Shown piece by piece: positions 4,521 to 44,240 of a stretch of 47,559 bases of DNA. Positions within the stretch are counted from its first letter, which is position 1. Each line of letters starts with the position of its first letter. The notes under the pieces were generated by a model that saw only the letters and a list, made by a program, of their open reading frames with translations, was not told the DNA's origin and did no database searches. Source of the stretch: a virus. The stretch spans positions 1-47,559 of the IMG/VR virus record IMGVR_UViG_3300042549_004748; one strand, written 5' to 3'. The position numbers were made by a program, and so were the translations under genes.

Positions 4521-4887
4521 GAAGATCTTAGAACAACTAGGAATTCAAATCACGGAAAAAAGTTTCAAAGACTGGTATAGATTGTGGTGGCAAAACCCTA
4601 GAGAAACTGGCAGCATGAGACTTACTGACAGAGGGTTAGAAGATTTTGAACAAAAAGCAGGGTTCAAATCTTACAAGATAGACTTTCCGCAACCACTAGA
4701 CACAGTAACCAATCAATTTATTTTAGATTTAGAGCATTTTATTGGTAGCCCGTACTACCTTAGTCGAAAGCACATTGTAGTTTTTACCGAAAAACTTGCA
4801 GTCCAACTAGTACTTTTTGGGGGAGATCTCCAAAAATATAACAAAGCTAAAACAATGTCGCAAAAATACAACACAAAATCTGCTTGA
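4492..4887 (+). CDS. Unknown protein, 131 aa
   Basis: ATG at 4492 is preferred, with AGG at 4485-4487 as ribosome site; a GTG at 4477 in the same frame is less likely, and an ATG at 4495 is also possible. The product contains SFKDWYRLWWQNPRETGSMRLTDRG, followed by FEQKAGFKSYKIDFP and a helical region with FILDLEHFIGSPYYL and KHIVVFTEKLAVQLVLFGGDL. I recall similar unnamed proteins in T4-like phages; no function can be given. The stop TGA lies inside the -35 box of the next promoter. Confidence 0.65.
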   Translation: MMDQKTLLTRKILEQLGIQITEKSFKDWYRLWWQNPRETGSMRLTDRGLEDFEQKAGFKSYKIDFPQPLDTVTNQFILDLEHFIGSPYYLSRKHIVVFTEKLAVQLVLFGGDLQKYNKAKTMSQKYNTKSA

Positions 4888-4912
4888 CAAATACCTAAAT
4901 TTGCGCTACAAT
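4884..4912 (+). promoter_or_regulatory. Sigma70-type promoter for the MoxR gene
   Basis: TTGACA (4884-4889), 17-base spacer, TACAAT (4907-4912). The -35 box is a perfect consensus and the -10 box matches 5 of 6. It overlaps the stop of the preceding gene and leaves about a 45-base leader before the ATG at 4963. Confidence 0.85.
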
Positions 4913-4962
4913 AGTAACACAGTAACAAATTAACCCACTGTTTTATTTTTTGAAAGACTCAA

Positions 4963-6045
4963 ATGGCAGAGAAACTTAGCGCAAACCGTACCGTTACACC
5001 TAACGAAGCAAAACGTTCTATTCGTAAGTGTGTCAAAATTCAACGTCCCGTGTTTATGTGGGGCCCTCCAGGTATCGGTAAATCCGATATCGTTAAACAA
5101 ATTGGCGACGAACAAGGCCGAGAAGTAGTCGACGTTCGATTGAGCCTTTGGGAACCCACTGACATTAAAGGCATTCCTTATTACAATTCCGATTCAGGTA
5201 CGATGACTTGGGCACCTCCTGCAGAATTGCCCACTGATCCAAATTCCACTGCAATCTTGTTCTTGGACGAATTGAACTCTGCGGCTCCTGCTACACAGGC
5301 AGCGGCTTTTCAATTAGTGTTGAACCGCCGTGTTGGTACTTATGTATTGCCAAAAGGTGTTAGTATTGTTGCCGCAGGTAACCGCGAAACTGACAAGGGT
5401 GTTACTTATCGTATGCCTGCTCCGTTGGCAAACCGTTTCGTTCACTTGGAGTTGCGTACCGATTATGAAGATTGGTTGAACTGGGCTACTTCTAACCGTG
5501 TCCACCAACAAGTCGTAGGTTATGTTGGCTTTGCCAAGCAAGACTTGTATGACTTTGATCCAAAGTCTAGCTCACGTGCCTTTGCTACTCCTCGTTCTTG
5601 GATGTTTGTTAGCGAATTGCTAACTGACGACGACCTGGATGAAGGTACACTAACTGACCTTGTGGCGGGGGCGGTCGGTGAAGGTCTTGCTGTTAAGTTT
5701 ATGGCGCACCGCAAAGTTGCTAACCAAATGCCTAAGCCAGAAGATATTTTGACTGGCAAAGTTAGCAAAGTAGATATCAAAGAAATCTCTGCAATGTACT
5801 CTTTGACTATTAGCCTGTGCTACGAACTTCAAGAGGCTGACCGCAAAAAAGCCAAAGATTGGGATTCGCAGGCTGACTTGTTCTTCAAGTTTATGATGGA
5901 TAATTTTCCAACTGAGCTAGTTGTTATGGGTGCTAAGGTTGCGCTTACAAATTACAATTTGCCATTTGATGCATCTAAACTTCAACACTTTGACAAATTC
6001 CATGACAAGTACGGCAAGTACATTATCCAAGCAATGGAAGGATAA
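4963..6045 (+). CDS. MoxR-family AAA+ ATPase
   Basis: A 360-residue AAA+ ATPase. Walker A is GPPGIGKS at residues 34-41, Walker B ILFLDE at 98-103, a sensor-1 Asn at N140 in VAAGNRE, and a conserved Arg region APLANRF near 158. The arrangement is of the MoxR type, whose members act as chaperones for partner proteins with von Willebrand A domains. The next gene encodes just such a partner. The gene has its own sigma70-type promoter and ends in an intrinsic terminator. Arg is almost always CGT/CGC and Leu often TTG, unlike the AGA/TTA-rich structural genes, suggesting strong expression or a different origin. Target in infection is unknown. Confidence 0.9.
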   Translation: MAEKLSANRTVTPNEAKRSIRKCVKIQRPVFMWGPPGIGKSDIVKQIGDEQGREVVDVRLSLWEPTDIKGIPYYNSDSGTMTWAPPAELPTDPNSTAILFLDELNSAAPATQAAAFQLVLNRRVGTYVLPKGVSIVAAGNRETDKGVTYRMPAPLANRFVHLELRTDYEDWLNWATSNRVHQQVVGYVGFAKQDLYDFDPKSSSRAFATPRSWMFVSELLTDDDLDEGTLTDLVAGAVGEGLAVKFMAHRKVANQMPKPEDILTGKVSKVDIKEISAMYSLTISLCYELQEADRKKAKDWDSQADLFFKFMMDNFPTELVVMGAKVALTNYNLPFDASKLQHFDKFHDKYGKYIIQAMEG

Positions 6046-6070
6046 AAAAGGCCCGCAGGGGCCTTTTTTA
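6044..6070 (+). terminator. Intrinsic terminator after the MoxR gene
   Basis: GGCCC (6050-6054) pairs with GGGCC (6059-6063) around loop GCAG, extended by six A-T pairs, and ends in TTTTTT (6064-6069). It starts within the stop codon of the MoxR gene and separates it from the VWA gene. The A-run on the left arm means it may also terminate transcription on the minus strand. Confidence 0.92.
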
Positions 6071-6071
6071 C

Positions 6072-6100
6072 TTGCTCATTTACGAATTTGACTATATAAT
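6072..6100 (+). promoter_or_regulatory. Sigma70-type promoter for the VWA/metallopeptidase gene
   Basis: TATAAT at 6095-6100 is a perfect -10 box; TTGCTC at 6072-6077 is a weak -35 with 17-base spacing. It begins 2 bases after the terminator and about 20 bases of leader, with AAAGGA at 6115-6120, precede the ATG at 6127. Confidence 0.75.
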
Positions 6101-6126
6101 AGTGTATAGACACAAAAGGATTTACT

Positions 6127-7389
6127 ATGACAGTAATGAAAGCAGAAAAAATTAAGAAGCCTACTAAGAATCGAGAATTCAATTCTGCAGAAAAGGCAAA
6201 GATTCTCGACAAGCTAATTACGGCACGAGTAGGTCTGTTACTCCGTCATCCGTTCTTTGGAAATCTTGCTACACGCATGAAACTTATTGATGCGTCCGAC
6301 TGGTGTGCTACTTTGGCCACAGACGGTCGTAACTTCTATTACAATAATGAATTCGTAGACAAACTTAAACCGAAAGAAGCAGAGTTTGGCTTTGCTCACG
6401 AAGTGTTACACAATGTATTTGATCACATGGGCCGTCGTGATCATCGTGATCCACAGTTGTCAAACATTGCGGCTGACTATGCAACTAACCAAATTCTTAA
6501 AGACGAGAAAATTGGCGAGGTGCCTAGCTTTATTAAAATTTTCCAAGATGACAAATATCGCGGAAAGAGCTACGAAGAAATTTACGACGAGTTATATTCA
6601 AAGGCTCAAAAAATTGACATCAGTAAACTTGGCGAACTTTTAGACGAGCACCTGGACGGAGAAGGCGACGGTGAAAGTGACGGAGAAGGCCAAGACGGTG
6701 ATATAGACGGTAGTGGCAAAGGTCGTCCCCGTTACACAGAAGCTGAGAAAAAAGCAATCCGTGATGAGATTAAAGAAGCAATGGTAGCCGCGGCACAGAG
6801 TGCCGGAGCAGGTCGTGTACCGGCCGGTGTTGCACGAATGATCAATGACTTTACTGAGCCTAAGATGGATTGGCGTCAGATGTTGCGTATGAACATCCAA
6901 AGTATCATTAAAAGCAACTTTAGCTTTAGCCGCCCTAACCGTAAGAGTCAGCATTGTGGTGCTATCTTGCCAGGCATGATGAATGAAGAAACTATTGATG
7001 TGTCCGTAGCAATTGATATGTCAGGTTCTATCTCAGACAAAATGGCAAAAGACTTCTTGAGCGAAGTTAAAGGCATAATGGACGAATACACAGACTTCAA
7101 GCTAGATTTGTGGTGCTTTGACACGCAAGTCTATAACTATGCAAGATTTACCGGTGACACTGCTGACGAGATTATGGAATACGAATGCAAAGGTGGTGGT
7201 GGTACTGACTTTGATGTAAACTACGATTTTATGAAAGAAGAAGGTATTGAGCCAAAACGCTTTATTATGTTCACTGACGGATATCCATGCGGTAGTTGGG
7301 GAGATGAGAATTATTGCGAAAGTTTGTTTATTGTACATGGCAACGACTCTATTATTTCTCCCTTCGGCCAGACCGCGCATTATAAATAA
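6127..7389 (+). CDS. Metallopeptidase-like / von Willebrand A domain protein
   Basis: A 420-residue protein with two parts. The N-terminal half resembles the putative metallopeptidase domain of DUF2201-type proteins: HEVLH at residues 91-95 (zincin HExxH), with H100 or D117 as a possible third ligand. An acidic Gly/Asp/Glu linker follows (about 175-197). The C-terminal half is VWA-like, with MIDAS residues D297-x-S299-x-S301, T360 in GGGGTDFD, and D384 in FTDGYP. MoxR ATPases commonly pair with such VWA proteins. The pair is adjacent but each gene has its own promoter. Codon choice is like the MoxR gene (CGT-rich). Whether it is a real protease is unknown. The stop overlaps a late-promoter-like TATAAATA. 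Confidence 0.88.
   Translation: MTVMKAEKIKKPTKNREFNSAEKAKILDKLITARVGLLLRHPFFGNLATRMKLIDASDWCATLATDGRNFYYNNEFVDKLKPKEAEFGFAHEVLHNVFDHMGRRDHRDPQLSNIAADYATNQILKDEKIGEVPSFIKIFQDDKYRGKSYEEIYDELYSKAQKIDISKLGELLDEHLDGEGDGESDGEGQDGDIDGSGKGRPRYTEAEKKAIRDEIKEAMVAAAQSAGAGRVPAGVARMINDFTEPKMDWRQMLRMNIQSIIKSNFSFSRPNRKSQHCGAILPGMMNEETIDVSVAIDMSGSISDKMAKDFLSEVKGIMDEYTDFKLDLWCFDTQVYNYARFTGDTADEIMEYECKGGGGTDFDVNYDFMKEEGIEPKRFIMFTDGYPCGSWGDENYCESLFIVHGNDSIISPFGQTAHYK
7381..7388 (+). promoter_or_regulatory. T4-type late promoter element TATAAATA
   Basis: An exact match to the T4 late -10 element, overlapping the stop of the VWA gene and lying 24 bases before the ATG at 7413. A gp55-type sigma factor is encoded at 43326. 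The match is in coding sequence (Tyr-Lys-stop), so it may be partly accidental. Confidence 0.55.
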
Positions 7390-7412
7390 ACAGAGAGTAA
7401 AGTAGGTACATA

Positions 7413-21171: not shown

Positions 21172-24100
21172 TTAATAACCCTTAATTTCTCTTCCATCAT
21201 CTAATAGTAGAGCGCTTCCATCACCGAATCTCAATACTGGATCACCACCATAGTATAATTGATCTGGCGAAATTGCTTCCTTCTTTTTAATAAATGCAGC
21301 TTGCGGTGTAAACTGTTCAAACAATGGTTTTCCTGAGAAAGTAGACCATATTTTTCCGGTACGTTGAACAATTTTAATTTCAACGCTTGCAAGGGTTGCA
21401 GTAGTAATAGTAAGTGTCGCAGTTGTAATCGATCCAGTAATAGTGAATTCTGGAGCTTTTACAGTCATATTTATAGGATTATAATACGATGCAGCATCGT
21501 GGACTAACACGTCAACTCCTACCTTTGTAGGTTTTTCTAGTAGTCGGCCGCCATAGTAAACTTCTACTTGATCATGTAAGTTGATGCTATCTCTAAATAC
21601 AAATTTACTAGTATCTAATTCTATAGTGACGGAAGATGTCGATACAGTAGTCACTGTTGACTCAATTACTACACTTTCTTGATAAGGAATAGTCTGCTGC
21701 TTGCCTTGGTCAAATACCCAAGTTCCTATCATGTAATGTTCTTTTGCACCAGTGCCCATTGTAGCTCTCTTAATGCGAGATAAAATATTTCCATTCTTTT
21801 CAAGATATTCAATGCGCTCGCCTGCAATAAAAATAATACCAGGGCTATTAGATTTGCTATCTGCATTGGGCAACACATCACCATTCTCTACATGTATTTC
21901 TGTATCAGTGAGACCCAATGGAACAACTAAGTAGGTAGTATCAGTATTGCTTAATCGCTTAAAGTGTGTACGGCCAATCATATCTCTAAAAATTTTCCAA
22001 CCAACTGTCTTACCAGCAGTGACTTGAGCAAAACTAGTAATAGTAACTTGGTCTTCGGCATTAAACGGAATAGCCTGGTCAACCATAACTGTCATACCAT
22101 CGCCTACCACTTCAAAATCAGTTCCTCCGAGCAATGTTTTATCTCCCACAGTCATCCATACTAAATTATCGTTTAGTACTTTTCTAGATATCTTGTACAT
22201 TCTTGTAGAACTTGCTTTATAAACTTCAGTCCTAATTAGTGCGGCATCGTGATTTGTAAATGTTAAAATTCTTAGATAGTTTTCTGTTGGTAGGAAAATT
22301 CTACTAGCAATCTCTAAATCATTACCTCTAATTAAATAATCATAATCAATCAATGAAGTAATAGCTACCACATCTCCCATTGCAAAAGTATCATCTTCAA
22401 ATACAATATTATTGTTAATATCATCTAGATAATAATCTGTAGGAATAACTTGCTTACCATTAATGAATACTTCAATGCGGGTCTTATCAAAAGAATTTGG
22501 TGGATACACTTCCTTAGAACTTATTAAGAATGTAGTTTGATTTACATTAGTAATTTCATAATAGGTTGTGTTAGGAGGAGTTAATCTCTTTCTATTAAAT
22601 TCTACGATAGAGTTAGCAGACGCTGGACCTAGTGTGCCGGGCGGTTGAGTTAATGTAATAACTCTGTCATCTTCTTTTAGATTAAAGTATTGCTGTTCAA
22701 ATACTTCACTGAATCCCTTAAATGCAGATGTAAAAAATGCTGCGGTGATTGTATTCTTTCCGTCAGTACCCAATCCGTATATAGTAACTTTAGCTCTACT
22801 ATCGATCCCTGGATTAGATTCTCCAAATACATAATAGACTGATTGTCCAAGGAAGGCGCCAGCTGTATATACCCGTTGACCATTTAACGTTACATACACG
22901 CTCTTAGCTTGTGAATATTGACAATCGCCAAGAACTGCGCCAATAGTCGAACCTTCGGTAACATTAGAATTTAGACTAATAAATCCGGTGCCACCAACGT
23001 CCATGCAAACAACTGCAACTGTTCCAGAGACAGATTTTGCATAAACTGTTATCTTCTTAGTTGCAAAGTCAATATCGTAATCAGCATTTCTAATTAATGG
23101 TTCGTTATTATAAGTTACTGAAATAGACCCAACAGATGGAGATAAAATACTTAAATTAATATCAGTGTTAACTCCGGCATATGCATGTTGTAATTGATTA
23201 TAGATAGTTGCACTACCAGAAACACTCCTGTTGAATACACTAATTCCAATTGATTCTCTTAACTCTCCTGGAATCATTTCTTCAGGAGCATAACTTCTTA
23301 TAGGAGAAATAAATGTATCACCATCCAATATAATATCTTCCGGATTAATGCCGGCTGCTGTAGAAAATACTTTAGTTGTACCAGTAGTTGCTACAGAGCC
23401 TCCGTCAATAATTGTATCTAAATCAGTTGTGTCGAAACTTTGTTTATCCCATGGTAATGAACTATACGGGCTAGAATCCCATGTAAAATCATACCATAAA
23501 TTTTGAGAAATAATTTCAGTTCCTGGATATTCCATACCTGACATTAATTGAGCATAATTTTCAGCAGGATTTGCACCAGGAGAATCTAACGGCACATTGT
23601 CGTAATAGTTTGCAATCCTATCATACGCAGAATAAATGTCTATGCTCTTTAGATATGTAATACGAATACTTGCGTCAGCTTCTGGCACATTAGATAAAAT
23701 TAATCTAGTATAATTTTGCGTATAACCATTGGCATTATCTGTGTAGTCTTCAATTTCGTACGACGAAGATGCAGCCGGTACTCCGTTTATTTTTAATACA
23801 ATTTCTGTTTTATCTGGATGAGATGGCCAAGATAAATCAAATTGATTAGTTACTCCGTCTCCTACAAAGTTATCAGTATAGTATTTGTTTGTAATTAATC
23901 TAGATTTAGAAATCCTGTCAAATTTCATTCCTATTAGATTTGATCTAACTTTTCCGTTTACTAAATGTACAGTAGCCCGTGCTACGGTATCTGTAGGTGT
24001 TAGTCCGCCTCCTGTAATTAATACCGTAGGATTTAATGTATATCCTTCACCAGAATCTATAATTTCAAATCTATCAATCTTTCCTGAAGATAGTACGGCT

Positions 24101-27100
24101 TCTGCGGTTGCATGTCTAGTAACATTGTCTCCAGATGCAGGGATAATTTGTACTATTGGATTTTCAATATATCCAGTGCCGGCTTCATCTACAACAATTG
24201 AATCAACTACTAATGTTCTATTATCATACCATCCTTTGTAAGGATATGTTGTTTGTGCCAGTGGTTCGTTTTCCGATAAAGTAATAAAAGAATTAGTGCC
24301 GTTATCGTATACAACTGGTAAATCAAAGTCCGTAGTATAGGTATTAGTAGGTTCAGTTACATCATATGCAAGATAGTAATTTCTAATTTTTGTATGATAA
24401 GGTTTGATTTCATTCAAATAATCTTCGTACCATTGTGCATCTTGAAATTTATAAACTGATCGTTGGGTTAATTCTCCAGCTTTATTATGTACAGAAATAA
24501 AACTAGTCTTGAATGCCCAGTCTAAGAATTTTTGTTCAGTCAATGCATATTTTACCGCTGCAAAGAAAGATTTATTCCAATATACTTTTAAGTTGCCAAT
24601 AAAAATATCATCTCTCAAAGAAAGTATAATATTTTTTAATTCTGTATCAGCCGTTTGGTCCCAGAAATTAGTGTCATACGGTGAAAGTTGATCCCATCCT
24701 AATTGAGAATTTGCTAATTTCCATATAGAATCTTTGATGTATAATGTGCCATTTTCGCTATACAAAATATCAAAATTAACATCATATGTACCCTGTACAC
24801 CTAATGCTGTTTTTCTAAGAATTATATAGCGGGCGGCACCGTTGTTTAATACTTTTACATAGTCTCCGGCTGTTAGATATAACCCATCTAGTTCAGCACG
24901 TTGCCCTACAATAGCAGCCAATCTTTGGTACTGATTAAATTCAGCAGATACCCAATCTGTAAAATCCCAATATAAAGTAGTGTCAAAACTTTGTGTTTGA
25001 ATTTTAGCCCAACCAGTATCACCTAATACATATTTTGCCCAACGTCCTCTAGAAGTAACATCGGAAGAAACAATTACAGTATACGGTCTAACAAAAATTT
25101 CTGGAGTAGTCACATATCCCGAACCACTATTGACAATTTGAACATCAATAATTCTACCTAATTCGTCAATAGTAGATTCCAATTTACTGTTATTTTGATC
25201 GTTAAAAACTGCAACGGATGGGCCTCGCCATGTTAACGCAACCCCAACATCATCAAATGTTAATGGATCTAATTTTCCATATCCAAATCCTGGATCTAGA
25301 ATCTTAACACTAGTAATACGACCGTTTTCAACTGTACAAGATACACTTGCTGATTTAACCTTACTAATGTTTATTTCGTTACGCTGGTCAGTATCTCCTA
25401 CAACTATATCATATTCGGAGACCGCTGGATCAGGAATAGATTCTTTAGAATTAAGTCTATCTAAATTGCAAAAATCTGTAATCAAGTTATTAGCAAACAC
25501 ATCGTTAACATATTCAAAGAAGTTACGTAACGCTGCTAATCTATCCTTAAACATACTTTGTCTAGGACGAATACCAATCCCATATTTTTGTCTATCAGAC
25601 AACATAGGATCGGGAACAATGTTACCCAGTGAGTCTTGTCCTAACAAACTGTCAATTAATTTTTTCTCTAAACTAGGAGTAGGTAAACTATGTTTATTAT
25701 CTTCTTCCAGTAATAACCATTCAGTATGTCGATTTGTCTTGTTGTCAATATCATCAATTTGAATATTCAAGAAAATACGTTCGTTAATTAATGATCCTTT
25801 AACATTCACTACAGCTATACTATTACTAGATAATGGTTCAACATATTTTAAGCCAAATAATTTTGGATTTTCAATTAGTCCAGCGACATCAAATGCTGAT
25901 ATTTGTCGGCCTTGTCTCACTGGAACAACCACAGTATTTCTTACCCAGAAATAATAAACATTTACAAATGTATCCATTATTGAACTGTATATCTGTTCTA
26001 CTACGTATGCAGAATTGTCTACATATCTAGGTGTACCACTTATATTTGCAGCAAGGCCAGCGGTAGTATCTGCATCAATAGCCCATTGATCTGGTAAGAA
26101 ATCAGATTTTACCCATTCGTAAATATCAATTGAGCATCCAGGAAATACTGAACCCCATGTATTTTTTCTAAATTCAATGTCGCCCTGTTCGTACCATGTG
26201 TACTTGACAGAAGATAGATCCCACCACAGTTCACCAACATGTTCCGAACTCCACGAAGTTAACATATCTATTGTGGCTAAAGTATTAGTACCTGTATTAT
26301 AGACAGCAGGATCAAAAAATGTCTTAAATCTAATTTCTTGATCAGCAGCTTGAGGAATTTTTCCTTTAATAGGATCATAAATTTCAAGATAATCAATTAC
26401 AGTATCTGCATAGACATTAATAGTTTTAACTTGTTTAATTTTTTCTACATCAACTAATTCAGTTTGTTGACGGAGCAAATTCCAACTATTAGAAGCCGGA
26501 TCTTTTGCTTGCCATATATGTATTGCACCAGTACGTAGTGTGCCAGTACTAATATGTCTTGGAGAACTAACATAAATTGTTTCTCTACTTACAGAAGTAG
26601 AATATCCGTAAGAACTGTTAGGTAGAACTGAACTATTGTATAATTCGCTAGCAAAAATAAACTTTTCTTCGTATCTGTTATAAACATATGCAGATCCAGA
26701 ATCTTCAACTAAGGTTCCTAGGCGAGTTGATTCAGAATCAAATGTAGTTGAATATTCGTCAAAACTTGCACTAGCAAAATAGTTAGGACCTTGGGAAGTA
26801 ACAGTTAGAATGTTTCCGGAAGAATCACTTTCAATACTAAATCCAAATTTCAAACCATTAGTAGTGCTCGGGTTGTCAATTACTTGCGTTGCAGTATATT
26901 GTGTACCTGTCCATTCATATATAACAACCTTACCACGTTGCAATACACTATCAAATGCATTGAACGCTGATACAAATAGATATTTTCCAGAATCGTCCAT
27001 ATCTATATCATAGCCAAATTGGCCGTCTGTCGAAATAGTGTTGTTTAACGATGTATCATTCCATAGTAGACTTTGCACAAATGTGTAATCAGATGTAGTT

Positions 27101-30100
27101 CCTGTATTTTCGTAAACATATACTGCACCCTTGCCATTGCTATATCCCGGTGCGCTGACTGCAACTCTCTTACCGGTCAAATCTCCCGCAATAACATCAC
27201 CAAATCTAGCACCTACTGATATGCCAGGAGACGGTAACTTAATTTGAGAAGTTGCAGTTGCATTAACATCAATTAATAAATTATCAAATGATCTGACATA
27301 TGCAACATCATAACTAAACACAGCACCTGTCGAATTTGTATGTCCAGGGGCACCAACTAATGCAATCTTTTGAGATGCAGTACTCGCAATGAATGTGCTG
27401 TATCCAAATTCTAAATTATTAGCCGGTTCCTGACAGGCCAACATAACATGTCGTAGTTCTGCATTACCCGTTACATTAAGAGTCGAAATAACAACCATAC
27501 CGTCATTAATATTTCCGATGCCAGAATTAGTAGCTTGAACATACCTAGTACTGCCTGATGCATCGGCGTTAACATTAGATGCATAAGGTGCGCCTGCTAT
27601 TATTACTCCGTCAACTGCGTCAAAATCTAAACCAAATCCAAACTTTGCAGCAGGTTGGCCACCATTTTCATAATATTGATTTAGTCCCCGATTCAATGGA
27701 TAACTGTTGATTAGCTTTAATGTACCGCCAGTATTAGTGTACATAAAGATCTGTCCAGACCCATTATCGTCGGCTAATCGAGGCGCCGATACTACTAGTA
27801 AATTAGAATTTTCTTTAGAAATAATTACTTCACCATAGAACGACCCGTCAGATAAAATCCTGTTGGTTAATATACTAGGTGTATAATTATCAATCTTTTC
27901 ATAAACTTCCCATTGACCAGTTACGTTAGAGTCAACCCAAATTTTTCTACCTGGAAAAATATCAGCAACATATTTTGTATCAATTAAATCATCAAATTTT
28001 TCAAATCTAGATGAAACAAACTTAAACAACACTCCAAAATCATTAGTACTAGTAGGTGCAGTAACAGTAGTCTTAACTACAATTTCATTCAACCTATTAA
28101 TTTCAGAAATAATATAAATTCCATTAACTTCGTCTGCAAATCGAGTTACTGCAATAATATCACCAACAGTTAACCCGTGATATGCATTGGTTGTAAATTT
28201 AATACTTTCGCCTGCAATGTTATCAGCAACTCCGATAATTGCAGTAGACATTCTTGTATAACGATATACTCCCCAATCATTGTTATTGTCAAATGCTACC
28301 CAAAATGTATCTCCTTGATTAACAGTTTTACCTGGAATAAAATTTAGTAAGTCTTGTTTAGACTTAACTGTATAATCAACATCTTCTAATCGAACATATC
28401 CTGCAACCGGTAGTTGAAAAGGTGTTAGATCAAACAGAGCATCTTTTGTAAAAAAAGTAGTGTCAACATTATAATCTAACGGTTTAATTGATAATGATTC
28501 AGAAGTTATATATAGTGTAGAGTCGTACTCGATAACAGGGGGTTCAGATACAAACTTAATTAATTGAGAATTGTCAACAAATTTAGATTCAGATAATGGA
28601 AATTCTAATTCTTGCAACGATGCATACGCACCAAACGTACCGATTCTAAATGCCCACTCTTCGTTAAAATCAATTTGTCCTTGCAAATTATGTACACTTG
28701 CCTTTGCTAATTTGTCAAGAGCATTACGTGTGCCCTTTTCTTTAATAAACCCTTGGAAGAACTTATATTGAGCAATGTGGTTAACAAACATATTATTAAG
28801 ATATAACCTTGAACTATATCCAGTTAAATGTTGTGCTAATTCTTGTTGGCTAATATCAAAATTATCAATTTCTAAACTATAGAAATCTTCAAATTGATTT
28901 AATTTATACTCAAAGTTCGGAATTAATTGAGCTACTGGTTTAGCACCCAACTTATTCCAGTCAGTAAAATCAAAAATTTCCTTGCCCGGTAGATTTCTAT
29001 CAAGAGAGTAATAACTGCCAGTATATTCTACTACATCTCCTGCAACATAATCTTCGTACGATTTCCATGTTTTAACAACAGCAGCATCATAAACAAACCC
29101 TGGACTAAAATAATCACCGTTCCAATTAGCAGTCTTAAATCCTACTAATCTAATTCGACGTTGTCTATACCCAGTATCAATGTCATATATAACATCGTTG
29201 AATCGACTTGTGTTATTCAAGATCAATGCATGTTCTTTTTGAACTAATCTTAGACTTGCAAAGAATATTCCCTCTTGGTCATTCTTTGAGGTAATTGTGC
29301 ATTGCCCATCAGTTCTACTAATACTTAAATCTGCAAATGGAAACGCTAATCCATCTGCTTTCAATAATGAATAGTCGTAAAAACTACCAAATATGTTGTC
29401 AACAACAGAATCTTGAAATGTAAATTTAATAGTATTTGCAAAAGGACTAATTGCAATTACACTATTATCTGCCCAATTTTGACTAGACCAATAAGCAAAT
29501 TCCTTAATTGAAAATTTCCAATTTAATGTTTCGCTGATATTGTTACTGAATTCGTCAAACTCAAAACCTTGAGTTTCTAGCCAGCGGCCGTATCCTGCCA
29601 TTACATCAGCAACTTCTTGAATAGAATTGTAACTAGAAGTATACGGAATATTAATTGCAGTGTTGTCAAACGAGAACGGATATGCAACTACTGTTGCATT
29701 AATTGTAGGCAATTCATTAAGTGCAGAATAATTCAATGAATTAAATGTGGTACCAGAATTATGATTATTAGTTGTTCTGTAAAATGAATTTTCATAAAGA
29801 ATAACTTGACCAATTGGGTAATAAACGTTTGTCGACCATACTGAATAATCTTCTGTTTGTCCGCCAACCGTAATATAAGTATCAGCCTTTTCATGTATTG
29901 CAGGTAGTATTGTAAAATACGGTTTTACTTTATCGTACCCTCGTACAATAAATTTACCTTGTAACTTCTGAATAAGGAATCCAGAAATATTAACAATTTT
30001 TACAGGATTACTAACATTAAAATGAATGTGGTAATCTTCAACTGGTAACAAGATTCCAGGATTAACACTGTTAGGATTAACTGAGTCAATTACAATATCT

Positions 30101-33100
30101 AATTTATCTTTGCTAACAAATCCGCCAACCTTGTGCATCAAATTAAATGTAGAATTTTGCAATTCTTCTTTAATATAAGATAGATAATTAGAGTTTCTAA
30201 TTTGTCCAGCTTCTACTGTAAACACACTGTATCCGGCCGTGAGTACTATAGTGCCGTTAATTTTTTCGTAAGGCAATAACACTCTAGATTGATTCAAGAA
30301 TAAATTATCTTCAGAATAAACATACTGTCCTATTACATTTTTAACAAGTCTGCTAGTATCAAACATCAATGCAGAATAAGCGGCGGGTTTTAATACTGCC
30401 ATAATAATCTGAACAGCAAATGGCCAATAACTGCCCCTTCTCCAGGCAGTTTCGCCCGGACCACTGTCACCAAATTTCCATTGTTGATCAGCAGTTTCTA
30501 AGTAAGGTGCCGAGCCAATTGGACCCCAGGTTCGAATATCTACCAAGTTACCATTTTCATCTACTGGTAGAACATTCAGTAATCCTTGCCTGATGTAGGT
30601 AGGATTAATTCCTGCTCGGGTCCCATGCTTAATTCTGCCGGCTTGAATATCTTCCCATAGTATAGTGTTACCTGAGGTGTACGGTGCTGGACCATATTCA
30701 TCTTCCCACCAAGAAGGAATTAAACTAAATCCTAACATTTCCCAAGGAGTAATATGAGGTCTGTCTGTATCAAAATACATCTTGAATATAGCTCTCCAGT
30801 TACCTGGTAGAGAGATACCACTATCGGTAGTAACTGCACTATAGTTAAACGTTCTTGGTATCGAGATGTCAAAGGTCAAGTTTTCGTCAGTCTCAACACT
30901 ATATGTCGTTTTCCATTTTAATAAATCTTGATGGACGGGATCTAAAATTTCAGAATATGTATATTCCTGATCTCTAAATATTCCAGGCAATATAGAATTA
31001 ACATCAAACAAATCTTGCCTATATTCAACTTTAATATTGTTAAAAATCCTACGTTCAAATTCTAATAAAATATCATCTCGATAGTCGCCAAACAAAATAG
31101 TAATGCTGCCGTCATGACCTTGCAACACTTGTTGAACATCTGATGCATAGGTATCGTCTGTAAATATTATCGGTTCAAACTTAGGATATAATCCTAACTT
31201 AGTAGGAGTTGGTGGAATAAAACTACCAGACGTATCACTGTAATATTTTACAGTAACTACGTCACTACGAACTAACGGAGTTAAAATTTCAATGTTGGTA
31301 TCATAAGAATCAAATATATAATCTTTGTTAACCAACAACTGACGGCCATTTAGATATACCAGTGTACCGATAATGCTTAATTGAGTAAGATTAAACTCTG
31401 CAGGGATTGCATATTTTATATTTCTAGAATCAGTAACAGTATAATTTCTAATAACTGCTCCCGATCCGTGCGGTATCATGTCACTATAATAATAGGGGAA
31501 TGTGGTAGTTTTATTTTGATTTAAGATTTGAAGAGATGCATCAAGTGCATCAATCGGTGACAACGTTTGATCTACTGAAGACATTGTCTTAATCAAATTT
31601 AACTTAAATTGATAATAATTTTCCCCAACAAGTCTAATTGCAGATATAACACTATTTTCTTCATCACTTATAAAGTGCTGAGCAAACGCCAACGAATTTA
31701 AGTTAGAAATTAATTTTGTTCCATATTGAGATACTTCCGGAAGATCTTTAAGATTACTTACTCCTGGAAACACTCCCATAAAATCAGGATCTCGATCGAT
31801 CATAGAACTAACATGGTTAGATAATTCAGTTAGAGTAAAATCAGAGATAGGATCATTTAGCGGGTTGTTGCTAAGATTTAATGGGACATCATATATTCCG
31901 TCAATCAATGAAATATTATAATCAGCAGCTTCCACCCACACGTTTGTTAAGGCGCCGTTGATCTTAAAATAAGTACTGGCAGTAGGTACATACCCAGTTA
32001 CGTTATTTTTTACCAATAAAAATTCTTCTGTTGCAAAATAATTCTTGAATAGATAAGTTCCTTCAACTCCTACATTCCTATATAATAAAGGAAAGCCTAA
32101 AATAGGATCGTTTGCACCTGTACCGATGCCGTAACCAAAAATTTTGTTACCGGCGAAATCAGTTGTATAATTTTTATCAGAATAATTTGCACCTTGATCG
32201 TCAAACAGATCAAATAGTGGGGCCTGATTTCTGTTAGATCGTTGCTGGCCTTTATTCCAGATAGTACCGGTGTACCACCAAGATGTGCCACCGTGTTCTA
32301 ATCCTTTTTTGACTAATGCACAAGAGCCATCGATTACTTGATCATTTTCTAAAATTAAATCAAGTTTGGTATCGGTGCCAACTAAGGAAAAATGTACTCT
32401 GAAGATTTTACCTCGAACTAATGGATCTGTGTCAGCGGTAAAGATTATACGGAATCCTTCTTCTAACAACACGCCATCAATATAAAATCCAAATTGATTT
32501 TCAATCTGCAAGAATGCATTTGTTGTAACAGTGTCAACTAAGTCTACATTAGGGATTGCGGTTGTACCAAAATTAAACAATTGAATATTTGGCAAAAATT
32601 CTACAATAGGGCGAGTTGCTCTATATTCAGCAGGATATACTGCTACTGTGCCATTTGCAGCGGCAGCTGCTCTAATAACATCAGAATGAAACCATCTATT
32701 ATAACGTGTCCATGGATTTAGATCTCTACTGGCTTTGTTAATAGTTACGTATTCTGGCACTAGAGGAATATTTGAAAAGTTATCAAACGGAAATTGATCA
32801 AAGTTTGTGCCATCAAATCTAGTATTATACAAATCGGCAACAACATCCGGAGTTGCTAAATCGTTAAACTTAATAAGATTGATAGATTTACCAACGCCAT
32901 CGACAATAAATTCAGTATCTCTATAAAATTCCGGAAACACTGTACCAATAAATTTAATTTTTAATCCATTGATAAATTCTACACCAGTTGTAGAAGTATA
33001 AGATTTCTTTCCAATAATCTCCGCTTCGACATCAATAGAAGAATTAAATTCGGGATCTTTTACAAAAATAGGACCAGTAGCTAGTTGATCATCACCGGAT

Positions 33101-33819
33101 GTATAGAACAAGTATTCTGGAGTCTGACTAGTTATAGTAACAACAATTTGTCCATTGTTAGTACCATTACCAGTAATTCCCATGTCAAACATGTTATCGG
33201 AGTCAGCCGTGTTTGTGTACTTAATATAAAAATTATGAATAGATTTTATATTAAAAACGTAGGTTGTTCCTCTGTAAAGAATTAATTGTTGAGAAGTAGT
33301 AGAATTATTAAAAAAGAATTGGATGCCATCGCTAGCATCTGTAACAGTATACTCAACTTGTGATGCCTTGCTATCTCCAGAAATACTAATTGCATTTGGC
33401 CCAGTAGGTAACCAAAAATATTCTCGAAAGTTAATAAATTTATCCCAATCAATTTTAGGATCATAAGAATAGAATTGAGGATGCAATAATCTATCTAAAT
33501 TCGACGAATGTCCGTTATGACTGTCAATTTGATTTAACAAATCGTCTAATGCAAATGCTTTTTTAATTTCTTGAGTTAATGTTCTAACAACTAATGCAGG
33601 CTCTAGCTGATATGATTGACGTAAAAGATTTGTTTCTTCTATATACCTGTCATTACTAGAATAGTTAGGAGTATTCTTACTTCCAACAAATGCATCTACC
33701 CTGTTCAATTGAGGAACAGACATAAACTGATCTAGTGTACTAGATAAAAATTTATTGTTTTTTTCTGTTCTAAAATATGCAGGAAGTAAATCAACTGACT
33801 TGCGAGTATTATCAGCCAT
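21172..33819 (-). CDS. Giant virion protein with embedded beta-propeller, 4215 aa
   Basis: This is over a quarter of the window. The N-terminal 120 residues look like a tail-attachment domain (VDLLPAYFRTEKNNKFLSSTLDQF, RLLHPQFYSYDPKIDWDKF). The middle is beta-rich. Residues 1991-2440 form seven FG-GAP (integrin-alpha-like) units. Near 2830-2910 and 3210-3270 are GxGYxxxP-type repeats (NSGSGYVTTPEIFV, DSGEGYTLNPTVLI). Several NGxxLxxxxDY-type beta modules (VFINGKQVIPTDYYLDD) follow. No membrane segment or protease motif is seen. Its place after gp6 corresponds to T4 gp7-gp10, so it may be a baseplate-arm or fibre-like protein. Start shares one base with the gp6 stop (TAATG). Similar giant proteins are known in aquatic T4-like phages. 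Confidence 0.85.
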   Translation of the reverse strand: MADNTRKSVDLLPAYFRTEKNNKFLSSTLDQFMSVPQLNRVDAFVGSKNTPNYSSNDRYIEETNLLRQSYQLEPALVVRTLTQEIKKAFALDDLLNQIDSHNGHSSNLDRLLHPQFYSYDPKIDWDKFINFREYFWLPTGPNAISISGDSKASQVEYTVTDASDGIQFFFNNSTTSQQLILYRGTTYVFNIKSIHNFYIKYTNTADSDNMFDMGITGNGTNNGQIVVTITSQTPEYLFYTSGDDQLATGPIFVKDPEFNSSIDVEAEIIGKKSYTSTTGVEFINGLKIKFIGTVFPEFYRDTEFIVDGVGKSINLIKFNDLATPDVVADLYNTRFDGTNFDQFPFDNFSNIPLVPEYVTINKASRDLNPWTRYNRWFHSDVIRAAAAANGTVAVYPAEYRATRPIVEFLPNIQLFNFGTTAIPNVDLVDTVTTNAFLQIENQFGFYIDGVLLEEGFRIIFTADTDPLVRGKIFRVHFSLVGTDTKLDLILENDQVIDGSCALVKKGLEHGGTSWWYTGTIWNKGQQRSNRNQAPLFDLFDDQGANYSDKNYTTDFAGNKIFGYGIGTGANDPILGFPLLYRNVGVEGTYLFKNYFATEEFLLVKNNVTGYVPTASTYFKINGALTNVWVEAADYNISLIDGIYDVPLNLSNNPLNDPISDFTLTELSNHVSSMIDRDPDFMGVFPGVSNLKDLPEVSQYGTKLISNLNSLAFAQHFISDEENSVISAIRLVGENYYQFKLNLIKTMSSVDQTLSPIDALDASLQILNQNKTTTFPYYYSDMIPHGSGAVIRNYTVTDSRNIKYAIPAEFNLTQLSIIGTLVYLNGRQLLVNKDYIFDSYDTNIEILTPLVRSDVVTVKYYSDTSGSFIPPTPTKLGLYPKFEPIIFTDDTYASDVQQVLQGHDGSITILFGDYRDDILLEFERRIFNNIKVEYRQDLFDVNSILPGIFRDQEYTYSEILDPVHQDLLKWKTTYSVETDENLTFDISIPRTFNYSAVTTDSGISLPGNWRAIFKMYFDTDRPHITPWEMLGFSLIPSWWEDEYGPAPYTSGNTILWEDIQAGRIKHGTRAGINPTYIRQGLLNVLPVDENGNLVDIRTWGPIGSAPYLETADQQWKFGDSGPGETAWRRGSYWPFAVQIIMAVLKPAAYSALMFDTSRLVKNVIGQYVYSEDNLFLNQSRVLLPYEKINGTIVLTAGYSVFTVEAGQIRNSNYLSYIKEELQNSTFNLMHKVGGFVSKDKLDIVIDSVNPNSVNPGILLPVEDYHIHFNVSNPVKIVNISGFLIQKLQGKFIVRGYDKVKPYFTILPAIHEKADTYITVGGQTEDYSVWSTNVYYPIGQVILYENSFYRTTNNHNSGTTFNSLNYSALNELPTINATVVAYPFSFDNTAINIPYTSSYNSIQEVADVMAGYGRWLETQGFEFDEFSNNISETLNWKFSIKEFAYWSSQNWADNSVIAISPFANTIKFTFQDSVVDNIFGSFYDYSLLKADGLAFPFADLSISRTDGQCTITSKNDQEGIFFASLRLVQKEHALILNNTSRFNDVIYDIDTGYRQRRIRLVGFKTANWNGDYFSPGFVYDAAVVKTWKSYEDYVAGDVVEYTGSYYSLDRNLPGKEIFDFTDWNKLGAKPVAQLIPNFEYKLNQFEDFYSLEIDNFDISQQELAQHLTGYSSRLYLNNMFVNHIAQYKFFQGFIKEKGTRNALDKLAKASVHNLQGQIDFNEEWAFRIGTFGAYASLQELEFPLSESKFVDNSQLIKFVSEPPVIEYDSTLYITSESLSIKPLDYNVDTTFFTKDALFDLTPFQLPVAGYVRLEDVDYTVKSKQDLLNFIPGKTVNQGDTFWVAFDNNNDWGVYRYTRMSTAIIGVADNIAGESIKFTTNAYHGLTVGDIIAVTRFADEVNGIYIISEINRLNEIVVKTTVTAPTSTNDFGVLFKFVSSRFEKFDDLIDTKYVADIFPGRKIWVDSNVTGQWEVYEKIDNYTPSILTNRILSDGSFYGEVIISKENSNLLVVSAPRLADDNGSGQIFMYTNTGGTLKLINSYPLNRGLNQYYENGGQPAAKFGFGLDFDAVDGVIIAGAPYASNVNADASGSTRYVQATNSGIGNINDGMVVISTLNVTGNAELRHVMLACQEPANNLEFGYSTFIASTASQKIALVGAPGHTNSTGAVFSYDVAYVRSFDNLLIDVNATATSQIKLPSPGISVGARFGDVIAGDLTGKRVAVSAPGYSNGKGAVYVYENTGTTSDYTFVQSLLWNDTSLNNTISTDGQFGYDIDMDDSGKYLFVSAFNAFDSVLQRGKVVIYEWTGTQYTATQVIDNPSTTNGLKFGFSIESDSSGNILTVTSQGPNYFASASFDEYSTTFDSESTRLGTLVEDSGSAYVYNRYEEKFIFASELYNSSVLPNSSYGYSTSVSRETIYVSSPRHISTGTLRTGAIHIWQAKDPASNSWNLLRQQTELVDVEKIKQVKTINVYADTVIDYLEIYDPIKGKIPQAADQEIRFKTFFDPAVYNTGTNTLATIDMLTSWSSEHVGELWWDLSSVKYTWYEQGDIEFRKNTWGSVFPGCSIDIYEWVKSDFLPDQWAIDADTTAGLAANISGTPRYVDNSAYVVEQIYSSIMDTFVNVYYFWVRNTVVVPVRQGRQISAFDVAGLIENPKLFGLKYVEPLSSNSIAVVNVKGSLINERIFLNIQIDDIDNKTNRHTEWLLLEEDNKHSLPTPSLEKKLIDSLLGQDSLGNIVPDPMLSDRQKYGIGIRPRQSMFKDRLAALRNFFEYVNDVFANNLITDFCNLDRLNSKESIPDPAVSEYDIVVGDTDQRNEINISKVKSASVSCTVENGRITSVKILDPGFGYGKLDPLTFDDVGVALTWRGPSVAVFNDQNNSKLESTIDELGRIIDVQIVNSGSGYVTTPEIFVRPYTVIVSSDVTSRGRWAKYVLGDTGWAKIQTQSFDTTLYWDFTDWVSAEFNQYQRLAAIVGQRAELDGLYLTAGDYVKVLNNGAARYIILRKTALGVQGTYDVNFDILYSENGTLYIKDSIWKLANSQLGWDQLSPYDTNFWDQTADTELKNIILSLRDDIFIGNLKVYWNKSFFAAVKYALTEQKFLDWAFKTSFISVHNKAGELTQRSVYKFQDAQWYEDYLNEIKPYHTKIRNYYLAYDVTEPTNTYTTDFDLPVVYDNGTNSFITLSENEPLAQTTYPYKGWYDNRTLVVDSIVVDEAGTGYIENPIVQIIPASGDNVTRHATAEAVLSSGKIDRFEIIDSGEGYTLNPTVLITGGGLTPTDTVARATVHLVNGKVRSNLIGMKFDRISKSRLITNKYYTDNFVGDGVTNQFDLSWPSHPDKTEIVLKINGVPAASSSYEIEDYTDNANGYTQNYTRLILSNVPEADASIRITYLKSIDIYSAYDRIANYYDNVPLDSPGANPAENYAQLMSGMEYPGTEIISQNLWYDFTWDSSPYSSLPWDKQSFDTTDLDTIIDGGSVATTGTTKVFSTAAGINPEDIILDGDTFISPIRSYAPEEMIPGELRESIGISVFNRSVSGSATIYNQLQHAYAGVNTDINLSILSPSVGSISVTYNNEPLIRNADYDIDFATKKITVYAKSVSGTVAVVCMDVGGTGFISLNSNVTEGSTIGAVLGDCQYSQAKSVYVTLNGQRVYTAGAFLGQSVYYVFGESNPGIDSRAKVTIYGLGTDGKNTITAAFFTSAFKGFSEVFEQQYFNLKEDDRVITLTQPPGTLGPASANSIVEFNRKRLTPPNTTYYEITNVNQTTFLISSKEVYPPNSFDKTRIEVFINGKQVIPTDYYLDDINNNIVFEDDTFAMGDVVAITSLIDYDYLIRGNDLEIASRIFLPTENYLRILTFTNHDAALIRTEVYKASSTRMYKISRKVLNDNLVWMTVGDKTLLGGTDFEVVGDGMTVMVDQAIPFNAEDQVTITSFAQVTAGKTVGWKIFRDMIGRTHFKRLSNTDTTYLVVPLGLTDTEIHVENGDVLPNADSKSNSPGIIFIAGERIEYLEKNGNILSRIKRATMGTGAKEHYMIGTWVFDQGKQQTIPYQESVVIESTVTTVSTSSVTIELDTSKFVFRDSINLHDQVEVYYGGRLLEKPTKVGVDVLVHDAASYYNPINMTVKAPEFTITGSITTATLTITTATLASVEIKIVQRTGKIWSTFSGKPLFEQFTPQAAFIKKKEAISPDQLYYGGDPVLRFGDGSALLLDDGREIKGY
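26500..27849 (-). other. Seven-bladed integrin-alpha-like (FG-GAP) propeller region
   Basis: Codons for residues about 1991-2440 of the giant protein. Seven units each have an [FY]G start and a later VSAP/VGAP-like strand. Examples are AKFGFGLDFDAVDG with IAGAP, LEFGYSTF with LVGAPGH, ARFGDVIAG with VSAPGYSNGKGAVYVYE, and QFGYDIDMDDSG with FVSAF. Several carry DxDxxG-like loops as in calcium-binding FG-GAP repeats. Confidence 0.8.
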
Positions 33820-43325: not shown

Positions 43326-44240
43326 ATGACCGTTGTAACCACATCACTGTCCACAGGACGTAAAGTAAAATACTTAAACAATAGAGACTTACTGGCAGAA
43401 ATTCATAAAAGTAAATGCTCATATAGTAGTTTTACTAAACCAGAATATCATCAGCATGATTTAATTTTACCAAGTTTAGATAAACTTAATATTAGAACCA
43501 TTGCCGATGCTAAAAGAATTAAAGCAAAACGATTAGGTCTAGAAGCCTTTGTAGCAGCTAGGCTAGGCGGAGACAAGAAGATAAAACTTCTCGAAGTAAC
43601 TCCGGACTATAAAACTATTGCCAAAACAGATGTTGTTATTAGAATAATGACATTTGATCATATTCCGATGGCGCCGGGACGCAAGAAGACTGTCAAAAGT
43701 GTAGCTGACGGCCACGAAAAAGTTAATTTTCCACCTTTCCAACATTGGAAGTTTGACGAAAATGATGAGCTTATTTGCGTTGGAAAAAGCCACTGGAAGG
43801 GCACCATTGACGGGGGAAGTTTCAACAAAGATCACGGTAGAATTACCGAAAACTTGGGTAAGATGTATATCAAACTAAGCGAGCGATATGCACAGCGCAG
43901 TAATTGGCGGGGCTATACTTATGTTGAAGAAATGCGGGGACAGGCAGTCTTACAACTATCGCAAATCGGCCTTCAATTTGATGAATCAAAATCAGAAAAT
44001 CCATTTGCTTACTACACAGCCGCGGTAACAAATAGTTTCACTCGGGTGTTGAACTTAGAAAAGAAGAGTCAAAACATTCGAGACGACCTACTAGAAATTG
44101 CAGGACTAACACCTAGTTTGACTAGACAAACGCAAGCCGAGTTTGCCGAAGAAACAGCACGTCAAGCAGAACTATACAAAAATATACGTATGCCAAAATC
44201 TGAAGAAACTAGTATCGAGGATGAAGAAGAAAACACTTGA
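43326..44240 (+). CDS. 55: gp55-like sigma factor for late transcription
   Basis: The C-terminal half matches the gp55 family: KLSERYAQRSNWRGYTYVEEMRGQAVLQLSQIGLQFDESKSENPFAYYTAAVTNSFTRVLNLEKKSQNIRDDLLE. This corresponds to sigma region 2, which binds the late -10 element and the polymerase. At 304 residues it is longer than T4 gp55 (185 aa). The extra N-terminal part (about residues 1-135) includes VNFPPFQHWKFDENDELICVGKSHW, which occurs in other aquatic versions. It is followed by gp47 and gp46 as in T4. It has its own host-type promoter and strong Shine-Dalgarno, fitting middle expression. Confidence 0.85.
   Translation: MTVVTTSLSTGRKVKYLNNRDLLAEIHKSKCSYSSFTKPEYHQHDLILPSLDKLNIRTIADAKRIKAKRLGLEAFVAARLGGDKKIKLLEVTPDYKTIAKTDVVIRIMTFDHIPMAPGRKKTVKSVADGHEKVNFPPFQHWKFDENDELICVGKSHWKGTIDGGSFNKDHGRITENLGKMYIKLSERYAQRSNWRGYTYVEEMRGQAVLQLSQIGLQFDESKSENPFAYYTAAVTNSFTRVLNLEKKSQNIRDDLLEIAGLTPSLTRQTQAEFAEETARQAELYKNIRMPKSEETSIEDEEENT

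What the first reader, a model, noticed from the sequence alone, without database searches (positions are those of the whole stretch)
4884..7389. Phage MoxR ATPase plus VWA/metallopeptidase module with private promoters
A MoxR AAA+ ATPase is followed by a protein joining a HExxH metallopeptidase-like domain, an acidic linker and a VWA domain with an intact MIDAS (D297, S299, S301, T360, D384). Both genes have sigma70-type promoters and a strong terminator separates them, which is rare in this packed genome. Codon use differs from the structural genes. The pair looks like a complete chaperone-adaptor system of unknown target, possibly acting on host complexes or late virion assembly.
Basis: partly seen in the sequence, partly recalled or inferred. 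Interest (0 to 1): 0.7.

Follow-up and report, generated by a model that had tools for sequence, protein, structure and literature searches.

The report
Phage MoxR–VWA metallopeptidase chaperone pair
A large phage carries a known pair of genes for a ring-shaped ATP-driven protein remodeller and its grip-and-cut partner; the pair is shared by hundreds of large phages, and here it proves to be strongly expressed with each gene on its own transcript.

Summary
A MoxR AAA+ ATPase (4963-6045) is followed by a DUF2201 protein (6127-7389): HExxH metallopeptidase-like domain, acidic linker, VWA with intact MIDAS. The pair is not new. Iyer et al. 2021 described it in jumbo phages, and it is homologous to phage N4 gp24/gp25, core genes of N4-like phages and middle transcripts in N4.

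What I add. (1) The promoters and terminator are real: across 89 non-redundant relatives a terminator follows moxR in 85 (other ORFs 15/715), and a strong sigma70 promoter precedes moxR in 82. A moxR terminator with unrelated stem sequence recurs in all 10 diverged large phages tested, including Bacillus phage G (other ORFs ~10%). (2) Both genes carry high-expression codon bias. (3) MIDAS is always intact, while the catalytic Glu is lost in 10 of 29 bacterial homologues and in Agrobacterium phage Atu_ph07, the published type example. (4) RefSeq's 'HNH endonuclease' label for the family is wrong.

Best reading: an early, abundant MoxR ring with a scarcer MIDAS adaptor/peptidase that remodels an unknown target. 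Early-type expression and presence in short-tailed phages weaken, but do not exclude, virion assembly. New member of a known kind; modest interest.

The parts
4884..4912 (+). sigma70-type promoter of moxR (TTGACA-17-TACAAT)
   Evidence: 11/12 match; >=11/12 match upstream of moxR in 82 of 89 non-redundant relatives against 36 of 672 other ORFs
4919..4962 (+). moxR 5' leader; in many relatives it begins with a hairpin whose arms change together (weak in the window itself)
   Evidence: 54 leaders folded, mean z -1.5; stems ATACTG/CAGTAT, ATATTGA/TCAATAT, GTATTGC/GCAATAC, ATGCGTT/AACGCAT and others
4963..6045 (+). MoxR-type AAA+ ATPase, 360 aa: Walker A G34-S41, Walker B D102/E103, sensor-1 N140, conserved R158 and R211
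   Evidence: Pfam, phrog_1297 2e-102, residues kept in 23 diverse relatives, model pLDDT 84.6 matching CbbQ/NorQ at Z about 14
6044..6069 (+). intrinsic terminator between the two genes
   Evidence: sequence; 85/89 relatives against 15/715 other ORFs; 10/10 diverged large phages against 31/316 other ORFs
6072..6100 (+). promoter of vwa (TTGCTC-17-TATAAT)
   Evidence: exact TATAAT in 72/89 relatives, score >=9/12 in 86/89 against 136/672 controls; stays next to vwa in loci where a small gene is inserted (L005, L059, L065)
6127..7389 (+). DUF2201 protein, 420 aa: metallopeptidase-like domain + acidic linker + VWA (N4 gp25 homologue)
   Evidence: PF13203 + PF09967, phrog_1314 7e-108, model pLDDT 77
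6397..6411 (+). HExxH (residues 91-95); with H100, R103, D117, N121 the conserved zincin-type motif
   Evidence: H91, H95, R103, D117, N121 invariant in 16 diverse phage proteins; E92 lost in Atu_ph07 and in 10 of 29 bacterial homologues
6604..6738 (+). acidic linker (residues 160-204)
   Evidence: 13 acidic, 5 basic of 45; low-confidence stretches in the model
7000..7377 (+). VWA domain with intact MIDAS (D297, S299, S301, T360, D384)
   Evidence: PF09967; VWA fold Z up to 12.9; MIDAS intact in 165/167 loci, the other two truncated, and in every bacterial DUF2201 homologue

Best explanation
The two genes encode a MoxR/VWA remodelling machine with a built-in metallopeptidase-like domain, the same system as N4 gp24/gp25. 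MoxR probably forms an ATP-driven hexamer. The VWA of the second protein docks on the ring, and its MIDAS metal grips an acidic residue of a target protein. ATP-driven movement strains or partly unfolds the target, and the HExxH domain cuts it or acts as a second, zinc-stabilised grip. The host sigma70 RNA polymerase makes the genes early or mid infection from two separate units. moxR has the near-consensus promoter and the stronger codon bias and is closed by a terminator; vwa has a weaker promoter. This would give more ATPase than adaptor, as a ring with one adaptor needs. The target is more likely a host protein or a phage replication/transcription protein than a virion part. Shown: homology, domain make-up, motif conservation, co-inheritance, conserved promoters and terminator, codon bias. 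Inferred: hexamer, docking, target gripping, cleavage, timing, stoichiometry, target class.
For: Domains and motifs. MoxR model closest among partnered AAA+ proteins to CbbQ and NorQ, the latter solved with its VWA partner NorD. Co-inheritance: pair found in every diverse record large enough to judge, adjacent in most, Mantel r 0.86. Early-type expression: conserved sigma70 promoters; the only two intergenic >=11/12 promoters in the window precede moxR and the late-sigma gene; no late-type TATAAATA upstream; N4 homologues are middle transcripts (PMC4193335). Separate units: terminator 85/89 and 10/10 diverged large phages. High expression: Arg CGT+CGC 0.89 (moxR) and 0.78 (vwa) against 0.42 elsewhere, higher than neighbours in 106/106 and 105/106 loci. 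NorD MIDAS mutants still bind NorQ but inactivate the target, and one NorD binds a NorQ hexamer (PMC9976466).
Against: No experiment on any phage pair was found. Peptidase activity is unproven, and the catalytic Glu is lost in Atu_ph07 and in 10 of 29 bacterial homologues. MoxR was seen by mass spectrometry in virions of phAPEC6 and PA5oct, and one VWA-protein peptide in a Vi01-like phage, which may point to the virion or to carry-over. The VWA domain (about 130 aa) is much smaller than NorD's (33 kDa), so docking could differ; the NorD-type finger was not looked for. N4-like, rV5-like and cyanophage versions mostly lack the terminator (8 of 9 tested). Early timing is read from promoters, not measured.
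Confidence: 0.55

Rival explanations
1. Virion assembly machine (Iyer et al. 2021): MoxR and the VWA-peptidase chaperone and cleave structural proteins during head or tail maturation, as proposed by analogy with the MoxR-VWA system of Acidianus two-tailed virus.
For: Published proposal (PMC7824862). MoxR peptides in phAPEC6 virions (6 peptides, 19%) and PA5oct virion MS note. In 121Q, RaK2 and S-TIM66 the pair sits beside structural genes. High expression would suit it.
Against: Host-type promoters and no late promoter, although a late sigma is encoded. N4 homologues are middle genes. The pair is shared by short-tailed N4-like phages and contractile-tailed phages, so a tail-specific role is unlikely. 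Thymidylate synthase was also found in phAPEC6 virions, so carry-over is possible. In N4-like phages and the window it lies beside replication and nucleotide genes.
Confidence: 0.3
2. The HExxH domain is not a protease in vivo but a zinc-stabilised binding platform; only the MoxR/MIDAS remodelling activity matters.
For: MIDAS is intact in every copy checked, while the catalytic Glu is replaced by H, Q, I, T, L or M in several bacterial lineages and by Gln in Atu_ph07, with the His ligands mostly kept.
Against: Phages of very different lineages keep HExxH...D...N almost without exception (21/23 diverse records; 161 of 167 loci with the full motif), which suggests catalysis is selected in phages.
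Confidence: 0.25
3. Metal or cofactor insertion chaperone for a phage or host metalloenzyme, as NorQD does for nitric oxide reductase.
For: Many characterised MoxR-VWA pairs mature metalloenzymes (PMC9976466, PMC13036017). Nucleotide-metabolism genes lie nearby.
Against: No metalloenzyme gene is consistently next to the pair in the records read. A peptidase site is not needed for this role.
Confidence: 0.08
4. The second gene is an HNH endonuclease, as RefSeq and PHROGs label it.
For: phrog_1314 and many RefSeq entries, including N4 gp25, carry this name.
Against: No HNH match in Pfam for the window protein or nine relatives; N4 gp25 matches DUF2201_N at 3e-87 and DUF2201 at 1e-46.
Confidence: 0.01

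Closest known systems
Jumbo-phage MoxR / metallopeptidase-vWA pair (Iyer et al. 2021; type example ASV44729.1/ASV44728.2)
   Same: Same two proteins and domain order. The type example is the Atu_ph07 pair read here, 42.9% (VWA protein) and 35.1% (MoxR) identical to the window's.
   Different: The Atu_ph07 protein has HQxxH, so the published example lacks the catalytic Glu that the window protein has. The passages of the paper read here describe no promoters, terminator or codon bias.
Phage N4 gp24/gp25 (core genes of N4-like phages)
   Same: Homologous; gp25 is PF13203 + PF09967; both motif sets intact; adjacent, same order.
   Different: No terminator between the genes in N4, LIT1 or IME11; middle transcription in N4 uses a phage RNA polymerase (PMC4193335) instead of host-type promoters.
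NorQ/NorD of Paracoccus denitrificans
   Same: MoxR fold (Z 14.0, 3.8 A rmsd over 219 residues) with a MIDAS-bearing VWA partner.
   Different: NorD has no peptidase domain; its VWA is larger and carries a finger; the target is nitric oxide reductase.
CbbQ/CbbO rubisco activase and RavA/ViaA
   Same: MoxR ATPase plus VWA partner; AfCbbQ2 Z 13.8 and cso-CbbQ Z 14.1.
   Different: No HExxH domain in the partner (established knowledge); host enzymes as targets.
Bacterial MoxR-DUF2201 pairs
   Same: Same domains, MoxR beside DUF2201 in most loci; Pfam family also rings in Thermotoga maritima and Deinobacterium chartae.
   Different: Patchy (11 of 299 and 19 of 299 genomes in two phyla over the family cut-off) and often without the catalytic Glu.

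Membership tests
DUF2201 (PF13203 + PF09967) | both Pfam models above their curated cut-offs, N-terminal then C-terminal | tested here: met
   147.2 bits (cut-off 23.2) and 54.1 bits (26.4)
MoxR-clade AAA+ ATPase | Walker A, Walker B, sensor 1, arginine finger | tested here: met
   G37, K40, E103, N140, R158, R211 invariant in 17 diverse relatives; R158 assigned as Arg finger by position only
MoxR-clade AAA+ ATPase | helix-2 insert hairpin | tested here: inconclusive
   model has strands 71-75 and 80-84 between helix 65-69 and the Walker B strand; not superposed residue by residue
MoxR-clade AAA+ ATPase | hexameric ring | not testable with these tools
   single-chain model only
MIDAS VWA domain | DxSxS...T...D on a VWA fold | tested here: met
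Zincin metallopeptidase | HExxH plus a conserved third ligand candidate | tested here: met
   H91/E92/H95 with D117 (or H100) conserved; the third ligand is not assigned by geometry
Zincin metallopeptidase | zinc binding and proteolysis | not testable with these tools
   needs purified protein
N4 gp24/gp25 family | homology of both genes, same order | tested here: met
Jumbo-phage MoxR/metallopeptidase-vWA pair (Iyer 2021) | MoxR gene with a vWA partner fused to an N-terminal metallopeptidase | tested here: met
CoxD/CoxE | partner matches PF05762 VWA_CoxE above its cut-off | tested here: not met
   13.5 bits against a cut-off of 26.4
Known anti-phage defence systems (PADLOC) | match to a defence-protein model | tested here: inconclusive
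   no convincing match in PADLOC 2.0 (best 0.0032 for the ATPase, none for the partner); the library covers only described systems
HNH endonuclease | HNH domain | tested here: not met
   no HNH Pfam match in the window protein or nine relatives

The most novel reading that the evidence does not exclude
Large phages carry an AAA+-driven, MIDAS-aimed metalloprotease made early and in quantity to take apart a specific host (or early phage) complex, with a transcription layout of separate units that sets the ATPase-to-adaptor ratio.
Probability: 0.2. Interest if true: 0.7.

Novelty: new member of a known kind. Interest (0 to 1): 0.37.

Why it matters
The family is a core gene pair of N4-like phages and occurs in jumbo, rV5-like and cyanophages (727 and 803 phage records have matches), yet its function is unknown and its public label ('HNH endonuclease') is wrong. 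The analysis turns a vague proposal into testable claims: the genes are early-type and highly expressed, the MIDAS is indispensable while the peptidase Glu is not universal, and the published type example is a natural Glu-to-Gln variant. N4 in E. coli K-12 is a ready test system.

Tried and rejected
PDB sequence search found no relative of the DUF2201 protein. The structure search of the full-length model was filled by VWA hits, so nothing is claimed on the fold of the peptidase domain. An exact TATAAATA late promoter is not enriched in the window (3 found, 7.2 expected) and only a related 8-mer is enriched upstream of ORFs in half of a relative's genome, so the late-promoter argument is weak on its own. 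The 5' leader hairpin is strong in many relatives but weak in the window and is not used as evidence for the window. No Rfam family and no tRNA in the window. The CRISPRi-ART genome-scale screens covered T4, T5, SUSP1 and PTXU04, not N4 as a whole. The 2020 integrative-omics paper on PA5oct, sought by DOI, is not held.
Full report
What is in the sequence. The window is a 47,559-base IMG/VR virus record. ORFs at 4963-6045 and 6127-7389 encode a MoxR-type AAA+ ATPase and a DUF2201 protein made of a putative metallopeptidase domain, an acidic linker and a VWA domain. A near-consensus promoter precedes moxR, and a terminator plus a second promoter fill the 81-base gap. The terminator was missed by the automatic scan. 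Promoter-like matches in the first 20 kb are as common as in shuffled DNA, so the match alone proves nothing.

Are the signals real? Yes, by conservation. In the first 80 IMG/VR relatives fetched (plus the window itself) moxR is directly upstream of vwa, usually 83-113 bases away, and the gap holds a terminator and a TATAAT promoter although most of the surrounding sequence has changed. Among 89 non-redundant relatives a terminator follows moxR in 85, against 15 of 715 other ORFs; the moxR promoter scores at least 11/12 in 82, against 36 of 672; TATAAT before vwa is exact in 72. Stem arms change together (GGGCCC/GGGCCC, GGACCC/GGGTCC, GGGCTC/GAGCCC and others). Where a small gene has entered the gap (L005, L059, L065), the promoter stays with vwa. 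In ten highly diverged large phages (Phosso, PA5oct, Atu_ph07, 121Q, SCTP-2, RaK2, Bacillus G, phiR1-37, phiA019, Vibrio 2.275.O) and one MAG contig (L188), moxR is again followed by a strong terminator with unrelated stem sequence; the rate for other ORFs in the same stretches is 31 of 316. N4-like, rV5-like, cyanophage and Thermus phage versions mostly lack it: only Presley of nine. These records share ancestry, so the counts are not independent trials.

Expression. Codon use of both genes differs from the structural genes (z 14.9 and 13.9) and, for moxR, from neighbouring genes too (z 11.6; vwa 3.6). The bias is of the high-expression type: Arg CGT+CGC is 0.89 in moxR, 0.78 in vwa and 0.42 in other ORFs, and higher than in the neighbours in 106 and 105 of 106 loci. 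The moxR leader begins with a hairpin in many relatives, with different stems that still pair. The phage encodes a gp55-like late sigma factor (43326-44240). The only two intergenic promoters scoring at least 11/12 in the window precede moxR and that sigma gene. No exact TATAAATA occurs upstream of moxR (0/74) or vwa (0/81). I infer early or middle expression by the host sigma70 polymerase. A near-consensus promoter, stronger bias and a terminator on moxR, with a weaker promoter on vwa, suggest that MoxR is made in excess. That fits the one-NorD-per-NorQ-hexamer complex of the best-studied relative (PMC9976466), but the ratio here is inference.

What it is. The pair is known. Iyer et al. 2021 reported a MoxR (ASV44729.1) and vWA (ASV44728.2) pair with an N-terminal metallopeptidase in group 2.2 jumbo phages and proposed virion assembly with peptidolytic processing (PMC7824862). 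These accessions are the Atu_ph07 genes. The pair is also N4 gp24/gp25, two of 14 core genes of 25 N4-like phages and middle transcripts in N4 (PMC4193335; PMC2784036). The window proteins match 803 (MoxR) and 727 (VWA protein) phage records, including N4-like, rV5-like and jumbo phages; cyanophages also encode both. Every diverse record large enough to judge encodes both. They are adjacent in most, separated in PA5oct, SCTP-2 and G, and on opposite strands in FV3 and 4MG. Divergence of the two proteins is correlated (r 0.86, 0 of 5000 permutations, 23 pairs).

Which parts matter. The MIDAS is intact in all 23 diverse pairs, in 165 of 167 loci (two truncated) and in every bacterial DUF2201 homologue examined. 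The peptidase motif HExxH...H...R...D...N is kept in 21 of 23 diverse pairs; Atu_ph07 has HQxxH, and a gammaproteobacterial MAG copy (L192) has lost the site. Of 29 bacterial homologues drawn from two phyla (2 x 299 genomes), 10 lack the catalytic Glu (HHxxH, HIxxH, HTxxH, HMxxH, QQxxH or a lost site). So the VWA/MIDAS function is the invariant one, and catalysis is kept mainly by phages. This is a caution for the 'peptidolytic processing' part of the published proposal, whose type example lacks the Glu.

Structure. The MoxR model (pLDDT 84.6) aligns with CbbQ and NorQ at Z about 14, along with other AAA+ proteins of similar Z. The DUF2201 model (pLDDT 77.3) shows a VWA fold (Z up to 12.9). 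The peptidase domain fold was not tested alone.

How it probably works. MoxR ring, VWA docked on it, MIDAS gripping an acidic residue of the target, ATP-driven strain, then cleavage or clamping by the zincin-like domain. NorD supplies the model: MIDAS mutants still bind NorQ but the target enzyme is inactive. Target class is open. Early-type expression, presence in short-tailed and contractile-tailed phages and neighbours in replication and nucleotide metabolism favour a host or replication/transcription target. Virion mass spectrometry hits for MoxR in phAPEC6 and PA5oct and structural neighbours in some phages keep virion assembly alive.

Verdict. Observation confirmed; interpretation partly supported; new member of a known kind. 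The additions are the conserved transcriptional separation, the codon bias, the asymmetric conservation of MIDAS and peptidase, the link between the jumbo-phage pair and N4 gp24/gp25 (already hinted at in the RaK2 annotation), and the correction of the HNH label.

Noticed in passing
window 43326-44240 (+): gp55-like sigma factor for late transcription (phrog_12791, 6e-82), behind a TTGACT-18-TATAAT promoter.
   Followed up: partly
window 21172-33819 (-): A 4215-aa ORF in the tail/baseplate region, with codon use significantly different from the other structural genes (z 13.6).
   Followed up: no
window 44286-47081 (+): SbcD- and SbcC-like nuclease subunit genes.
   Followed up: no
phrog_1314; N4 gp25, RaK2, PA5oct, LIT1, phiR1-37 records: The family is labelled 'HNH endonuclease' in PHROGs and RefSeq, but Pfam shows DUF2201 metallopeptidase-VWA and no HNH domain.
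   Followed up: yes
L101 (Vibrio phage VCO139) 5465-7254: The MoxR homology is split into two ORFs with an annotated HNH homing endonuclease gene between them; an intron or an interrupted gene.
   Followed up: no
L005, L059, L065 between moxR and vwa: A related small ORF (MAVKSWYLS...ENY, about 55 aa) has entered the gap between terminator and vwa promoter.
   Followed up: no
window 7381-7412 and relatives: An exact TATAAATA overlaps the vwa stop codon, followed in relatives by a conserved AAGTAGGTATATAATG start region of the next gene; possibly a late promoter for the next gene.
   Followed up: no
L214-L216, L218 (bacterial): A Pseudomonadota DUF2201 group with HHxxH in place of HExxH beside MoxR genes.
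   Followed up: partly
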